Shown one piece after another: positions 2,640 through 9,133 of a stretch of 19,692 bases of DNA. A model generated the notes under the pieces. The model saw only the letters and a list, made by a program, of their open reading frames with translations. It did not search any database and was not told the DNA's origin. Source of the stretch: Actinomortierella ambigua (lineage: Eukaryota; Mortierellomycota; Mortierellomycetes; Mortierellales; Mortierellaceae); NCBI GenBank assembly GCA_016098155.1, contig JAAAJB010000633.1, positions 1 to 19,692 of the forward strand. Direction: 5' to 3'. Numbering within the stretch: position 1 is the first letter of the stretch; each line of letters begins with the position of its first letter. Both the position numbers and the translations under genes were made by a program.

Positions 2640-5600
2640 TCAGCCTTGGGTGGTGGATGATAAGATCCTTCTTGCTATAATGGATCCGTAGGAATCTAAG
2701 GAAAGACCGCTGCCACTGTGGGACCACTCACTGTGAACATCCTCGTAGTCGTCAACATCAATGATCGCACCGTCTTGCGCGTCCCGTTCGACCTCCAGCC
2801 AAAGTGAACCTGAGAGATGCTGCACCTGGTTTGCCTTGGGACGCTCAGTAGGATCGTGGCTCCAACAACTCATGACCAACGATGCATAGGCAGGTGGTGT
2901 GTCTGCGGGCAGGACTTCTCGCTCTTGATCCTTGACGAGATTCATGACCGTGATGTCGTCGGACATTTTCTTGAACGGCGTAGTGCAGCGAGCCGCCATT
3001 TCCCAAAGAACCATTCCGAAAGCGTACATATCCGACTTTATCGAGAAAGCAGGCTTCACGGTCAAGAGCTCGGGTGCCATCCACCGTAGACCACTCGTGG
3101 ACTCAACATCCGGCCTCAACTGCTTCAACTCCCTGACCGTCGGCAGCCCAAAGTCGCAGATCTTAGCCGCCAGATCACGCGTGAGGAGCACATTGGTGCC
3201 TTTGAGGCTTCGGTGCAATATGCCGTTGTTGTGAATGTACAGCAGCCCTTGCGCAATCTCGTGACCCAGTCGACACTTTGTTGCCCAGTCCATCTCAGTC
3301 CGCACAATTTGGTCCGCAAGGCTTCCATTCTCGACACGCTCCGCAAAGAGATGGATTCTTGGTCCTGCAAATTCAGCGCCGTAGAACTCGGTGATGTGCT
3401 CGTGCACCAGGGTTTGGAGCACGGCAGCCTCTTTCTCAATGTCGCCTCGGAGGAAGTCAGCATGCCGGAGAGACAGTGTCTTGACAACGCATGATTTACC
3501 GCTCTTCTCGGCAGAGTGTACAAAACCATATGGTCCTGATCCGATGTGTTCTCCAACATTGGTAGGCCGCTGTGACACCTCAACTTCGCCCTTCTCGACT
3601 TGCTGTACATGTTGGTACATCTCTCTGAGTAGTTTTCGTGAAAAACCATGCCCTTGCTCCGCTGCCTTGGTGAACCACTTGACAGCCTCATCATCGCTCT
3701 GCTCAGCTCCTCGTCCCTCCTGGAACATACAGCCAAGGCTGAATTGTGCTTCCTGATGACCTTGTTCTGCTGCCATCATGAACCACATGAGGGCCTCACT
3801 ATCGCTCTGCTCAACTCCTCGTCCCTCCTGAAGCATACAGCCCAGGTTAAATTGTGCACTGGCATCTCCTTGATCTGCGGCTTTGGCGAACCACATGACG
3901 GCCTCAATATCGCTCTGCTCGACACCTTTGCCCTCTGCGTATATCAGTCCAAGTCTGACCTGTGCATTGATAATCCCTTGTTCTGCGGCTTTGGTGAACC
4001 ACTTGGCGGCCTCAATAGCATCGCTCTCAATGACACCGAATCCTCCCTTGCACATCATTCTGAGATGGAATTGTGCATTGGCATCTCCTTGATCTGCGGC
4101 TTTGTCGAACCAAATGACGGCCTCAATATCGCTCTGCTCGACACCTTTGCCTTCTGCGTATATCAGTCCAAGTCTGACCTGTGCTTTGACATTCCCTTGT
4201 TCTGCGGCTTTGGTGAACCACTTGACGGCCTCAATATCGCTCCCATCAACACCTTTGCCTTCCGCGTACATCAATCCAAGTCTGAATTGTGCACTGGCAT
4301 TCCCTTGTTGTGCGGCATTCGTGAGCCACTTGACTGCCTCAACATCGCTCTGCTCGACACCTTTGCCTTCCGCGTACATCAATCCAAGTCTGAATTGTGC
4401 ACTGGCATCTCCTTGATCTGCGGCTTTGGTGAGCCACTTGACTGCCTCAACATCGCTCTGCTCGACACCTTTGCCTTCTGCGTACACCATGCCAAGTCTG
4501 AATTGTGCACTCGCATTCCCTTGTTGTGCGGCACTCGTGAACAACCTGGCTGCCTCGACATCGTTCTGCTCGACACCTATTCCTTCCGCGTATGCCACTC
4601 CAAGACTGTGTTGTGCACTGATATTCCCTTGCTGTGCTGCCATGACGAGCCACTTGAGTGGCTTCTCGTCGCTTTGTTGCACCCCTCGACCAAGAGAGTA
4701 CCATGTCCATAGCTTGTACGGTGCATCACTTTGCCCTTGAAAGGCGGCGCTGCGGTACCACCTCAATGCCTCCTCCTCGTCCTGCTTGACACCACGACCA
4801 TACTCATACATGTTGCCAATTCGATATTGAGCCTCTGCACTGCCTCCATTCGCCGCTCGTAGATACCATATCGCAGCCTTCTCATCACTGGCATCGACAC
4901 CACGGCCTAGATCATACATCTTGGCAACACGAAGCTGTGCCACCACTGTTCCATGCGATGCCGCAAGTCGATACCACCAGAAGGCGTCCTTGTCACTCTT
5001 GTAGATTCCACGGCCATGATCGTAAATCCATCCGAGGAACAGCTGCGCCTCCACACTTCCTTGCGTGGCCGCCATGCACATATGTTCCACCACATCATCG
5101 TCCATCGATGGCAATCGACCAACATACTGGTCGGCGCTCGGGTGGTGAACGGCTTTCACTTCTGATAGGCCTTGATGGGCGTCGTGCGACTTCAGCCAAT
5201 CATCTGCCCAACTAGAATGGCCGAAACTGAAGTCAATACTGCTTTCATCAATGTTGGTGCGCTCCCTGGTTGGCTCGAGATGGATCTGTACCACCTCGCT
5301 TGCTTCTGGACGATCCATAGGATCCTGTTGCCAGCATCGCTCTGCCCACAAACGATATTCGGTTGGAGTGTCCTCTGGAAACGTCTCACGCACACCATTT
5401 TTGACAAGCAGAGCGATAAGGTCATCGCTGTCTTGAGATATGTAGGGTTTCGTACAGCTGGCCGCCATCTCCCACATCACCACTCCGAGTGCATACACAT
5501 CCGACTTGGTCGTGTACATTGGCTTCGTGGCGTACATAAGCTCAGGGGCCATCCATCGGAGTGTCCCCGCAGGCTTAGCCCCCGACCGACTGCCTGTCAT

Positions 5601-6086
5601 CGATGCCTGACTTAGCGACCGCATCTTGGACAGTCCAAAGTCTGCCAGCTTGACCTCCATGTGCTTGGTGAGGAGAACATTGGCACTCTTCAGGTCGCGA
5701 TAGATGATCCCTTGTTGGTGGATGAATTCAAGGCCAAGAGCAATCTCACTCGTGAGCCGCCTCTTGGTCGTCCAGTCGTCGAGGCCGAGAGATTTGTTGC
5801 GAATGACTTGCGCCAGACTCCCTTTTTCGGCCAGCTCCATGAGGAGGTAGAGGTGGCCGTCTTGTTCGTGGGTCTTATAGAACTGGATGATGTGGCGATG
5901 GCGGAGCTTTTGGTGGATGGTAGCTTCGTTCATGATGCACTCTTGGTGATGGTCGTCCTCATTCAAATAGAACTTCTTGGCCGCAAAAGTGTGGTTCCCT
6001 ATCCGCGCCTTGTGGACAGAAGCATAACCTCCTGCACCCAGTTTCTCTCCTAAGACGAGATAGTGCTTAGGATTTACCCCCATCAT
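2640..6086 (-). CDS. Kinase - Sel1 repeats - pseudokinase protein (1148 aa)
   Basis: One uninterrupted frame encodes three parts. An N-terminal TKL-type kinase (about residues 9-268) has a glycine loop at 17-24, Lys37, Glu54, a YRD catalytic loop with Asp131, Asn136, DFG at 149-151 and APE at 180-182, so it looks active. A linker leads to thirteen 36-37-residue Sel1-like repeats (about 345-814) plus a degenerate one; such repeats form helical scaffolds for protein binding. A second kinase domain follows (about 853-1105) with Lys869, Asn965, DFG at 978-980 and an APE motif, but its catalytic loop reads His-Arg-Ser, Ser960 replacing the catalytic Asp. It is therefore a probable pseudokinase. 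No signal peptide or membrane segment is seen, so it is probably cytosolic. The start at 6086 lies 16 residues before the glycine loop, as in the downstream paralogue; an upstream exon at 6165-6197 is possible. Substrate and pathway are unknown. Confidence 0.88.
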   Translation of the reverse strand: MMGVNPKHYLVLGEKLGAGGYASVHKARIGNHTFAAKKFYLNEDDHHQECIMNEATIHQKLRHRHIIQFYKTHEQDGHLYLLMELAEKGSLAQVIRNKSLGLDDWTTKRRLTSEIALGLEFIHQQGIIYRDLKSANVLLTKHMEVKLADFGLSKMRSLSQASMTGSRSGAKPAGTLRWMAPELMYATKPMYTTKSDVYALGVVMWEMAASCTKPYISQDSDDLIALLVKNGVRETFPEDTPTEYRLWAERCWQQDPMDRPEASEVVQIHLEPTRERTNIDESSIDFSFGHSSWADDWLKSHDAHQGLSEVKAVHHPSADQYVGRLPSMDDDVVEHMCMAATQGSVEAQLFLGWIYDHGRGIYKSDKDAFWWYRLAASHGTVVAQLRVAKMYDLGRGVDASDEKAAIWYLRAANGGSAEAQYRIGNMYEYGRGVKQDEEEALRWYRSAAFQGQSDAPYKLWTWYSLGRGVQQSDEKPLKWLVMAAQQGNISAQHSLGVAYAEGIGVEQNDVEAARLFTSAAQQGNASAQFRLGMVYAEGKGVEQSDVEAVKWLTKAADQGDASAQFRLGLMYAEGKGVEQSDVEAVKWLTNAAQQGNASAQFRLGLMYAEGKGVDGSDIEAVKWFTKAAEQGNVKAQVRLGLIYAEGKGVEQSDIEAVIWFDKAADQGDANAQFHLRMMCKGGFGVIESDAIEAAKWFTKAAEQGIINAQVRLGLIYAEGKGVEQSDIEAVMWFAKAADQGDASAQFNLGCMLQEGRGVEQSDSEALMWFMMAAEQGHQEAQFSLGCMFQEGRGAEQSDDEAVKWFTKAAEQGHGFSRKLLREMYQHVQQVEKGEVEVSQRPTNVGEHIGSGPYGFVHSAEKSGKSCVVKTLSLRHADFLRGDIEKEAAVLQTLVHEHITEFYGAEFAGPRIHLFAERVENGSLADQIVRTEMDWATKCRLGHEIAQGLLYIHNNGILHRSLKGTNVLLTRDLAAKICDFGLPTVRELKQLRPDVESTSGLRWMAPELLTVKPAFSIKSDMYAFGMVLWEMAARCTTPFKKMSDDITVMNLVKDQEREVLPADTPPAYASLVMSCWSHDPTERPKANQVQHLSGSLWLEVERDAQDGAIIDVDDYEDVHSEWSHSGSGLSLDSYGSIIARRILSSTTQG
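3645..5054 (-). repeat. Coding tandem array of 108-bp Sel1 units
   Basis: The central part of the kinase-pseudokinase gene is a DNA-level tandem array with a 108-bp period, one Sel1-like repeat per unit. Units nearest the N terminus (about 4620-5054) are diverged, while those between about 3860 and 4620 are nearly identical over long stretches. One unit near 4016-4024 carries an extra codon. Two neighbouring two-unit blocks, starting near 3871 and 4090, match closely at an offset of 219 bp, which equals two units plus that codon. This points to recent unequal crossing-over or gene conversion inside the array. Confidence 0.85.
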
Positions 6087-7385: not shown

Positions 7386-9133
7386 CTAAGTGCTAGTGAC
7401 TCTTTGCTCAGCGGCTCTTTGGTACCACAGGGCGGCCGTAGCGTCATTCTGTTCGACACCAAGGCCCTTTTTGAAAAGCGTCCCAAGCTCGTGCTGTGCT
7501 TTTGAGTGCCCGCTCTCCGCGGCAGAACGAATCCAAGTGGCAGCTTCGGCGACATTCCTCTTGACACCGCGACCCTTTTTCAACATCACCCCCAGGCTAT
7601 ATTGAGCACGGGTGAAGCCCTGAACAGCGGCCTTACGAAACCATTGTGCCGCCGTCTTGCTATCTCGCTCGATACCAAGGCGGCCACTCGAGTATATAGA
7701 TCCAAGAATAAACTGAGCCTCTGCATGGCCAAGATTGGCCGCCTTCGTGTACCAGCGGAAAGCCTCGGTTTCGCTCTGCTCCAATCCTTGGCCGTGTTCA
7801 TACATGCCTCCGAGGCAGATCTGGGCATCGGCATCCTCTTGTCTAGCAGCCTTCTCGTACCAGCGGCACGCCTGTGAATCGCTCTGATGGGCGCCAAGAC
7901 CGAATTTCCGAAACCGGCCAACATGGTACTGAGCGTTAGCATGGCCTTGCATCGCCGCCTGTAGATACCAGAAGAGTGCCTCTGTGTCGCTCTTGACTAC
8001 GCCTTCGCCCCTCTCGTAGAGAGCAGCCAATTGTGCCTGTGCATCCATATCGTCGCATTCGGCTCTTCGAGTCAACTCCTCAACACAGCTCGGCCGTTGC
8101 CTTGTAACATTCTCGCCAGCGACTGGCGGCTGGTCAGAAGAATCAACTTCAGCCTGGCCGACGTCCTGCCCATTGTCTGTTGGGGTGTCGTCGACCATCA
8201 ACGAGATGCTTCCAAGATCGAGATAACTTGCCAAATCTGTGTCGCCACCATTATCTTTTCCTTCCATTGTTTGCTGTTCTTGTTCATGTGGTCTTAAAAC
8301 TACCTCGCTCGCCTCAGGGCGTTCCGCGCTCTTCCGATGCCAGCACCTCGCGATCCACTTGCGAAGCTCCGGATCGATCTCATCACCCAAATCCATCCGG
8401 TCACCGTTGCACACAAGCTGAGGAACCGTGTTCTCGTCGTGGCCCGCATACGGACGGGTTTGATCGGCTGCCAACTCCCACATCACGATACCGAGCGCGT
8501 ACACGTCAGACTTGGTCGAGTACTGAGGTGAGTTACTCAAAGTCTCTGGAGCCATCCACCGCCTCGTGCCTTTGGGTGCAGTGTCTCGGGAGGAAGGGGT
8601 GGTGAGATCAATTGCATGCCCAAAGTCGCACAGCTTGACCTCCTTGTGCCTTGTGAGGACAATGTTGCCACTCTTTAGATCACAGTGAAGAATGTTCTCA
8701 TCATGCATGTACTCGAGCGCGCGGGCAATCTCATTGGCAATACGTATCTTGGTGGGCCCATCTAGAGTACGCTTCTGGATGGCTCTCGACAGGGACCCAT
8801 GCTCAGCCAGGTCGGTGATGAGATAGAACTTGTCGTCCGTTCTATATGTCCGATAGAACTGGATAATGTGGCGATGGCGAAGTCGTCGCAGGACGTTGAT
8901 CTCATGCTGGATGGCCTCCTCTTCCTGTTTGTGAAGCGTCTTTGCGGCACAGGCGTGATTGATCCATTGAGCAGGATACACACTAGCAGACTGCCCCCAG
9001 CCGAGGCTTTCTGAATTGATAATGCATCTAGTGAGGGACTATTCGATCAAGATTAGATTAGATGCAAGACATTACTGTTTGCGGGAGCAATTCACATGCT
9101 TTTCCGTCACCAACATTTAAACATACATACCAT
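7386..9133 (-). CDS. Protein kinase with six Sel1 repeats (551 aa)
   Basis: This is a paralogue of the kinase-pseudokinase gene downstream on the same strand. Exons are 9131-9133 and 7386-9038. The first coding exon is just the ATG, followed directly by a GTATGT donor; the 92-bp intron ends in ATAG with CTAAT branch-like sequence near 9051-9061. This join restores a glycine loop (residues 14-21, Gly-Trp-Gly..Val) that a start inside exon 2 would truncate. The kinase domain (about 9-270) has Lys34, a catalytic loop His-Cys-Asp with Asp121 intact, DFG at 139-141 and a WMAPE motif. Replacement of the HRD arginine by cysteine makes it a non-RD kinase, a class often not controlled by activation-loop phosphorylation. 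An acidic linker leads to six Sel1-like repeats ending at the C terminus. No second kinase lobe is present. It is probably cytosolic; substrates are unknown. Confidence 0.87.

What the first reader, a model, noticed from the sequence alone, without database searches (positions are those of the whole stretch)
2640..6086. Active-looking kinase and probable pseudokinase bracket a Sel1 scaffold in one chain
The first kinase domain keeps Lys37, Glu54, Asp131, Asn136 and DFG. The second keeps Lys869, Asn965 and DFG but has Ser960 where the HRD aspartate belongs. Kinase plus pseudokinase in one polypeptide is known from JAK kinases, where the pseudokinase regulates its partner. Here a rod-like Sel1 array lies between them, which could set the distance between lobes or recruit a substrate. 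I do not recall this exact order being described, though kinase-Sel1 fusions are known from Glomeromycotina and Mortierellomycotina.
Basis: partly seen in the sequence, partly recalled or inferred. Interest (0 to 1): 0.75.

Follow-up and report, generated by a model that had tools for sequence, protein, structure and literature searches.

The report
Fungal kinase–Sel1–pseudokinase tandem protein
A soil fungus encodes a protein with an ordinary-looking kinase at one end, a long repeat scaffold in the middle and a second kinase lacking its catalytic residue at the other end, and related genes show such second kinases losing catalytic residues again and again, much as in kinase–pseudokinase pairs of animal and plant signalling.

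Summary
One 1,148-codon ORF (2640-6086, minus strand) encodes kinase – about 13 Sel1 repeats – kinase. The named residues check out, and Ser960 (codon AGC) replaces the HRD Asp. The genome is Actinomortierella ambigua (DFQ27). Strain DFQ26 has the same architecture, and its second kinase (78% identical) also reads HRS, so the Ser is not an error or private mutation. The first kinase is not conserved: in DFQ26 it reads HCN, is 56% identical and has closer relatives elsewhere. "Active kinase controlled by its pseudokinase" is therefore not a fixed feature of this gene.

The wider result: in the part of this genome I could read, 8 of 10 second-position kinases have lost a core catalytic residue, mostly different ones, against 2 of 73 first or only kinases (Fisher 5e-8; 1e-4 with lineages collapsed). 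Four of the ten lie behind a conserved 87-nt intron. Family-wide, similar Sel1 repeats differ most at TPR-type concave positions, hinting at recognition; this gene's own array does not show that.

Verdict: real, a new variant of known kinds. The mechanism is inferred, not shown.

The parts
2640..6086 (-). Whole ORF, 1,148 aa, kinase-Sel1-kinase (P0001)
5286..6056 (-). First kinase domain (aa 11-267): K37, E54, YRD131, N136, DFG149-151 present; glycine loop GAGGYA
   Evidence: Pfam PF07714; residues
5103..5285 (-). Linker aa 268-328, predicted unstructured (pLDDT below 50)
3597..5099 (-). Sel1 array, aa 330-830, paired helices, about 13 repeats of 36 aa; DNA-level tandem repeat of period 108 at 3647-4631 (77% matches)
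2820..3566 (-). Second kinase domain (aa 841-1089): catalytic-Asp-less (HRS), with K869, E886, N965, DFG978-980 and glycine loop GSGPYG kept
3207..3209 (-). Codon 960, AGC = Ser, at the HRD Asp position
2643..2771 (-). C-terminal tail aa 1106-1148, low confidence in the model but similar in P0004
7386..9038 (-). Neighbouring gene, same strand, of the same family: kinase (HCD, N, DFG) plus Sel1 repeats, no second kinase

Best explanation
The gene is a real kinase-Sel1-pseudokinase protein of the very large kinase-Sel1 (TKL-like) family of Mortierellomycotina. Its second kinase keeps the residues for holding ATP and metal but lacks the catalytic base, so it most likely acts as a nucleotide-binding, phosphotransfer-impaired domain: a conformational regulator, docking surface or decoy. 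The Sel1 superhelix joins the two kinases and most likely also binds a partner. In this strain the first kinase would carry the output. Members of this class arise repeatedly: kinase-Sel1 genes gain a second kinase by duplication or fusion, the second copy then loses catalysis while its fold is kept, and N-terminal kinases are exchanged between paralogues. Shown by sequence: the architecture, the HRS substitution and its conservation in one other strain, the excess of catalytic losses in second kinases, and the non-matching first kinases. Inferred: ATP binding, loss of activity, regulation in cis, partner recognition. My confidence that the second domain is a real, maintained pseudokinase is about 0.85; the figure below is for the whole mechanism.
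For: HRS with all other core residues kept, same in P0004 at 78% identity. Single-base error cannot give AGC from GAC or GAT. 8 of 10 second-position against 2 of 73 first or only kinases have lost one of K, E, HRD-D, N, DFG-D, DFG-G (p 4.9e-8; 4 of 6 against 2 of 73 when second kinases are collapsed to lineages, p 1.4e-4). Second kinases of the five intron-type loci are open and under purifying but weaker constraint than first kinases (median dN/dS 0.41 over 10 pairs against 0.21 over 66 pairs). First kinases of P0001 and P0004 are 56% identical and each has closer relatives elsewhere (66% and 63%), while the second kinases pair with support 1.0. Concave-face Sel1 positions change fastest family-wide.
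Against: The HRD Asp itself is missing in only 3 of the 10 second kinases and 1 of 73 others; two of the ten are intact. In P0004 the first kinase is also altered (HCN), so a kinase-regulated-by-pseudokinase pair is not conserved. P0001's own Sel1 array shows no concave-face excess. No transcript, protein or activity data. The full-length model gives no confident arrangement of the kinases (pTM 0.43).
Confidence: 0.42

Rival explanations
1. The second kinase is a decaying spare part: extra kinase copies are tolerated at the C-terminus and drift to death without a function.
For: Different residues are lost in different copies; dN/dS is higher than in first kinases; in the DFQ27 copy nearest to DFQ26 protein P0008, catalytic residues are altered while P0008 keeps them.
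Against: The copies stay open over 270-322 codons and dN/dS is well below 1. The same substitutions persist between strains in two separate lineages: HRS in P0001 and P0004, HRN plus SFA in P0011 and P0012. P0001 and P0004 also share the tail after the kinase.
Confidence: 0.25
2. The second kinase still phosphorylates with an unusual mechanism; Ser960 does not mean inactivity.
For: Everything else needed is present. Weak activity of some HRD-Asp-less kinases has been claimed in the literature (recalled, not looked up).
Against: The catalytic Asp is kept in 72 of 76 domains of the sample (one of the other four is truncated there), so the family does not treat the position as free.
Confidence: 0.12
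3. The protein is a recognition receptor in which the second kinase imitates a kinase attacked by a foreign or incompatible partner (a decoy), as proposed for some plant tandem kinases.
For: Large, clustered, strain-variable family: at least 220 kinase domains in 33.8 Mb; only 4 of 17 DFQ26 members have a match of 91% or more among the DFQ27 sequences held; Sel1 concave positions vary fastest; first-kinase exchange.
Against: No link to immunity or non-self recognition in this fungus; only part of the DFQ27 family was available; the array of this gene itself does not show the pattern.
Confidence: 0.15
4. Artefact: an assembly or sequencing error fused two genes or created the Ser.
For: Some annotated multi-kinase proteins of this family do look like gene-model fusions of tandem genes (P0005 residues 2-527 match a separate 540-aa ORF at 98%).
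Against: Here the ORF is continuous, and P0004 from another assembly shows the same three-part architecture, the same HRS and the same tail.
Confidence: 0.03

Closest known systems
Expanded kinase / Sel1 gene families of Glomeromycotina and Mortierellomycotina
   Same: Same domains in very high copy, in tandem clusters and strain-variable; published for Rhizophagus and Paraglomus (passages in PMC9453076 and PMC8647823) and seen here in A. ambigua, A. wolfii and Mortierella proteins.
   Different: Most members seen here are kinase then Sel1 (63 of 87 proteins). A second, catalytically altered kinase after the array is not described in the passages read.
Plant tandem kinase-pseudokinase proteins (TKPs: WTK1/Yr15, RPG1)
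   Same: Kinase and pseudokinase in one chain, arising many times by duplication or fusion, with the pseudokinase variable at catalytic positions (abstract and section 15 of PMC6170490).
   Different: The 92 plant TKPs had no other conserved domain (same section). Here 13 Sel1 repeats lie between, and the kinases belong to a fungal TKL-like family. No known role in immunity.
JAK kinases (JH2-JH1)
   Same: Pseudokinase plus kinase in one polypeptide; the TYK2 JH2-JH1 construct is the top whole-sequence PDB match of the second kinase (131 bits summed over two stretches).
   Different: Order reversed (pseudokinase first in JAKs, recalled), no repeat array between, different kinase group; the best single-stretch match is plant CTR1, 124.6 bits.
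IRAK3 (IRAK-M)
   Same: Pseudokinase with Ser at the catalytic Asp position (CGS in place of HRD) and other binding residues partly kept (passages of PMC7955167).
   Different: IRAK3 also loses H and R, the third glycine and the DFG Gly; it has a death domain and no second kinase or Sel1 array (partly recalled).
MLKL-class annotation of Sel1-containing Glomeromycotina proteins
   Same: Kinase-like plus Sel1 proteins filed under a pseudokinase transporter class (passage of PMC8778642).
   Different: That assignment is by database similarity; no MLKL four-helix bundle was looked for or seen here.

Membership tests
Fungal kinase-Sel1 family | Protein kinase domain (PF07714/PF00069) plus Sel1 repeats (PF08238) in one ORF | tested here: met
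Fungal kinase-Sel1 family | Many related copies in the same genome | tested here: met
   At least 220 distinct kinase domains on 130 contigs, from three capped searches
Pseudokinase (second domain) | Loss of at least one core catalytic residue with kinase fold kept | tested here: met
   HRS960; Pfam kinase match and kinase secondary-structure order; the domain model itself is weak (mean pLDDT 59.5)
Pseudokinase (second domain) | No or much reduced phosphotransfer | not testable with these tools
   needs assay
Plant TKP | Kinase and pseudokinase in tandem in one protein | tested here: met
Plant TKP | No other conserved domain | tested here: not met
   About 13 Sel1 repeats between the kinases
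Plant TKP | Kinase domains related to plant RLK/RLCK or soluble plant kinases | tested here: inconclusive
   Best PDB single-stretch match is plant CTR1, but closest full relatives are fungal
Plant TKP | Role in resistance to pathogens | not testable with these tools
   needs genetics
JAK | FERM and SH2-like domains, then JH2 pseudokinase, then JH1 kinase | tested here: not met
   Pfam finds only kinases, Sel1 and weak repeat-type matches, in the order kinase, Sel1, kinase
JAK | Pseudokinase controls its partner kinase in cis | not testable with these tools
   no contact information (pTM 0.43)
IRAK | N-terminal death domain | tested here: not met

The most novel reading that the evidence does not exclude
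Actinomortierella evolved, several times over, a fungal counterpart of plant tandem kinases: intracellular receptors in which a variable Sel1 array recognises a partner, the first kinase signals, and the C-terminal pseudokinase is a decoy or switch. First kinases and arrays are shuffled between paralogues while particular pseudokinases (HRS here; HRN plus SFA in P0011/P0012) are kept across strains, forming a strain-specific non-self or environment recognition repertoire.
Probability: 0.15. Interest if true: 0.85.

Novelty: new variant of a known kind. Interest (0 to 1): 0.52.

Why it matters
High-copy kinase-Sel1 genes are among the largest gene families of arbuscular mycorrhizal fungi and their relatives, and what they do is unknown. 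A subset with a second kinase that repeatedly loses catalysis gives a handle: it predicts regulation or decoy function, singles out testable genes, and offers a third setting (after animal JAKs and plant TKPs) in which kinase-pseudokinase fusion evolved repeatedly. If the Sel1 concave faces do vary for recognition, the family would be a candidate receptor repertoire in early-diverging fungi.

Tried and rejected
Considered and rejected. Sequencing error at Ser960: two base changes are needed and P0004 shares it. Recent internal duplication of the first kinase: the two kinases of P0001 are 41% identical and do not group. Taking all annotated multi-kinase proteins at face value: P0005 (and probably P0002, P0006, P0013, all kinase-Sel1-kinase-Sel1 types) look like fusions of tandem genes, shown only for P0005, and all four were left out of the second-kinase comparisons. 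JAK homology: the TYK2 match sums two stretches.

Led nowhere. IQ-TREE run timed out; FastTree was used. Placement of the P0001/P0004 second-kinase pair among other kinases is weak (support 0.58-0.68, 0.6-0.93), and the place of P0001's first kinase differs between the two trees (support 0.94 for a 10-domain group; only 0.61 nearest grouping, inside a 37-domain clade of 0.98). A housekeeping yardstick for strain divergence failed: the protein search with a neighbouring window ORF scored nothing, so P0001/P0004 are called homologues, with orthology uncertain. The domain model of the second kinase is weak (mean pLDDT 59.5), so no fold search was run. dN/dS for P0001 against P0004 was not possible (no nucleotides held for DFQ26).

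Limits of counts. Kinase searches of the genome returned 150, 146 and 147 scored matches from 399, 438 and 489 candidates, so 220 is a lower bound, and multi-kinase ORFs can be missed (two on contig C10 were). Only 84 domains of this genome were read in full enough to type; 1 was dropped as truncated. They are not a random sample: best matches to the second kinase, contigs at both ends of my list, and second-kinase loci fetched on purpose. The Sel1 test set (positions 2, 5, 9, 12, 13) is recalled from TPR literature but was fixed after I had seen the per-position table, so its permutation figure (4 of 200,000 at the 75% threshold, 20 at 80%, 77 at 85%) is not a clean p-value; dN/dS-type ratios at these positions stay below 1 (0.80-0.86), so positive selection is not shown.
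Full report
What is there. The minus-strand ORF 2640-6086 encodes 1,148 residues without a stop. Pfam finds protein kinase domains at both ends and a Sel1 array between. The first kinase has YRD rather than HRD and Ala as the third glycine of its loop. Codon 960 is AGC (3207-3209). A predicted fold of the whole chain gives the Sel1 part (aa 330-830) as regular helix pairs at pLDDT mostly 80-95, an unstructured linker at 268-328 between first kinase and array, and no confident overall arrangement (mean pLDDT 70.2, pTM 0.43). The second kinase alone gives a weak model (59.5, pTM 0.58).

Whose genome. The held genome G000 has 33.8 Mb in 846 contigs. Protein P0011, named Actinomortierella ambigua, matches it at 100% over 724 residues, and the contig lengths listed for A. 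ambigua DFQ27 proteins (52907, 62085, 60137, 73131, 11270) equal those of G000 contigs C129, C50, C61, C9 and C794. So the window comes from the A. ambigua strain with DFQ27 locus tags.

The nearest relative. P0004 (DFQ26_002863, another A. ambigua assembly) has kinase, Sel1 repeats, kinase, and the same C-terminal tail. Its second kinase is 78% identical and reads HRS. Its first kinase reads HCN and its gene model starts inside the domain, so its N-lobe is unknown. The two first kinases are 56% identical over 187 columns, while each has closer relatives elsewhere: 66% for P0001 with C599, 63% for P0004 with C3. The second kinases pair with support 1.0. The simplest reading is that the pseudokinase was kept while the N-terminal kinase was replaced. 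No closer DFQ26 protein appeared in two protein searches, and nothing nearer than 48% appeared from BGZ73 or A. wolfii among the best 120 of 162 and of 441 hits. In this genome the next best match to the second kinase is 46-48%. Orthology of P0001 and P0004 is uncertain: other DFQ26 proteins of the family reach 91-98% identity with DFQ27 sequences in 4 of 17 cases (made with only part of the DFQ27 family).

Not a single oddity. Among 72 distinct kinase ORFs read from this genome (loci L001-L073), 62 are kinase-Sel1, 5 kinase only, 3 kinase-Sel1-kinase (two on C10, one on C70), 1 kinase-kinase (C70), and 1 is a truncated copy of the window gene. Besides these, kinase-Sel1 ORFs are followed at once by a second kinase ORF at C825, C199 (two places), C541 and C279. 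At the first four, the two ORFs are separated by an 87-nt stretch GTAAGG...TTTAG that restores one frame if spliced. The exact junction pattern occurs four times in the genome, at these four places, and never in the reversed control. The DFQ26 protein P0008 is annotated exactly as such a spliced kinase-Sel1-kinase chain; this is a gene model, not a transcript. C279 has a different, less clear junction.

Second kinases lose catalysis. Typing six core residues (Lys, αC Glu, HRD Asp, Asn, DFG Asp, DFG Gly), 8 of 10 second-position kinases of this genome have lost at least one, against 2 of 73 first or only kinases (Fisher 4.9e-8). The losses are: DFG Gly to Ala and to Ser (C10), to Arg (C825, reading DLR); HRN with SFA (C70); EFG (C199); Asn to Cys, with HHD (C541); Lys to Met with HRN, Asn to Ser and GFG (C199); HRS (window). 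Two are intact (C70, C279). Collapsing to six lineages gives 4 of 6 against 2 of 73 (p 1.4e-4). The HRD Asp alone is lost in 3 of 10 against 1 of 73, so HRS is one form of a wider pattern, not its rule. One further domain was dropped as truncated. In 13 other two-kinase proteins from annotations (P0004, P0007-P0010, P0012, P0018, P0122-P0126, P0147), the second kinase is altered in 8 (P0018 and part of others truncated) and unaltered in 5; the first is altered in 2 (P0004, P0009). Two A. wolfii proteins (P0123 with HRN and GFT, P0126 with GFS) are among them, and HRN with SFA is shared by P0011 (DFQ27) and P0012 (BGZ73).

Kept, but loosely. The second kinases at the five loci above are open over 270-322 codons and their pairwise dN/dS is 0.32-0.48 (median 0.41, 10 pairs), against a median of 0.21 for 66 pairs of first kinases: below 1, but weaker constraint. 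One case shows how the state changes: the C541 second kinase differs from P0008 at 3 of its first 104 residues but at 27 of the next 94, where the catalytic loop is altered (my count from the alignment). That mosaic suggests exchange with a paralogue.

The array. Sel1 repeats of this family share the TPR helix-A register. Among similar repeats within one array (at least 75% identical DNA; 293 pairs from 24 arrays), nonsynonymous change at positions 2, 5, 9, 12 and 13, which line the concave face of TPRs (recalled), is 0.378 against 0.119 elsewhere, with pN/pS 0.83 against 0.38 and 0.48 for other surface positions. This favours a variable binding face. Against it: the set was fixed after seeing the per-position table; the ratio stays below 1; and in the window gene alone the pattern is absent (0.198/0.413 at the set against 0.142/0.208 elsewhere).

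How it may work. The most likely reading is that the second domain binds nucleotide but does not transfer phosphate, and serves as switch, dock or decoy; that the array binds a partner; and that the first kinase signals where it is intact. That the first kinase is altered in P0004 argues against a simple conserved pair of enzyme and inhibitor.

What is known. [quoted passage not shown] 2,533 kinases in Rhizophagus irregularis (passage of PMC10234402); proposed roles in perception (passage of PMC8647823). Plant tandem kinase-pseudokinases number 92 in one survey, arose by duplication (52) or fusion (40), and have no further domain (section 15 of PMC6170490). IRAK3 has Ser at the catalytic Asp (passages of PMC7955167). 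Six searches of the open-access library showed no paper describing a kinase-Sel1-pseudokinase order; I looked into passages of four fungal papers only (PMC8778642, PMC9453076, PMC8647823, PMC10234402), and most subscription papers are not held. The pseudokinase survey of Kwon et al. 2019 could not be read.

Verdict. The finding is real and correctly described. Its interpretation needs widening (a recurrent class) and softening (the active partner is not conserved). New variant of known kinds.

Noticed in passing
window 7386-9038 (-): A second gene of the same family next to the finding, same strand: kinase (HCD, atypical glycine loop) plus Sel1 repeats, without a second kinase.
   Followed up: partly
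P0005 (DFQ26_006417) against G000 C129:7033-7770 (L015): The annotated 1,282-aa kinase-Sel1-kinase-Sel1 protein looks like a fused gene model: its residues 2-527 match a separate 540-aa ORF at 98%. P0002 (DFQ27_002898, four kinase-Sel1 units) may be the same.
   Followed up: partly
L075 (C541:12200-13000) against P0008: Mosaic second kinase: N-lobe nearly identical between strains, C-lobe diverged with altered catalytic loop, suggesting gene conversion between paralogues.
   Followed up: partly
G000 C199:30183, C199:41598, C541:12320, C825:7160: Four 87-nt introns of equal length at the Sel1-to-kinase junction; retention would give the kinase-Sel1 part alone, so splicing could decide whether the second kinase is present.
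   Followed up: partly
P0019 (DFQ26_001336): Kinase-Sel1 protein whose precomputed Pfam list also holds GTPase-type domains (PF01926, PF04548), another fusion in the family.
   Followed up: no
L072 and L073 (C70), P0012, P0123, P0126: A separate older lineage set of two-kinase proteins with none to two Sel1 repeats, shared by A. ambigua and A. wolfii, also with altered second kinases.
   Followed up: partly
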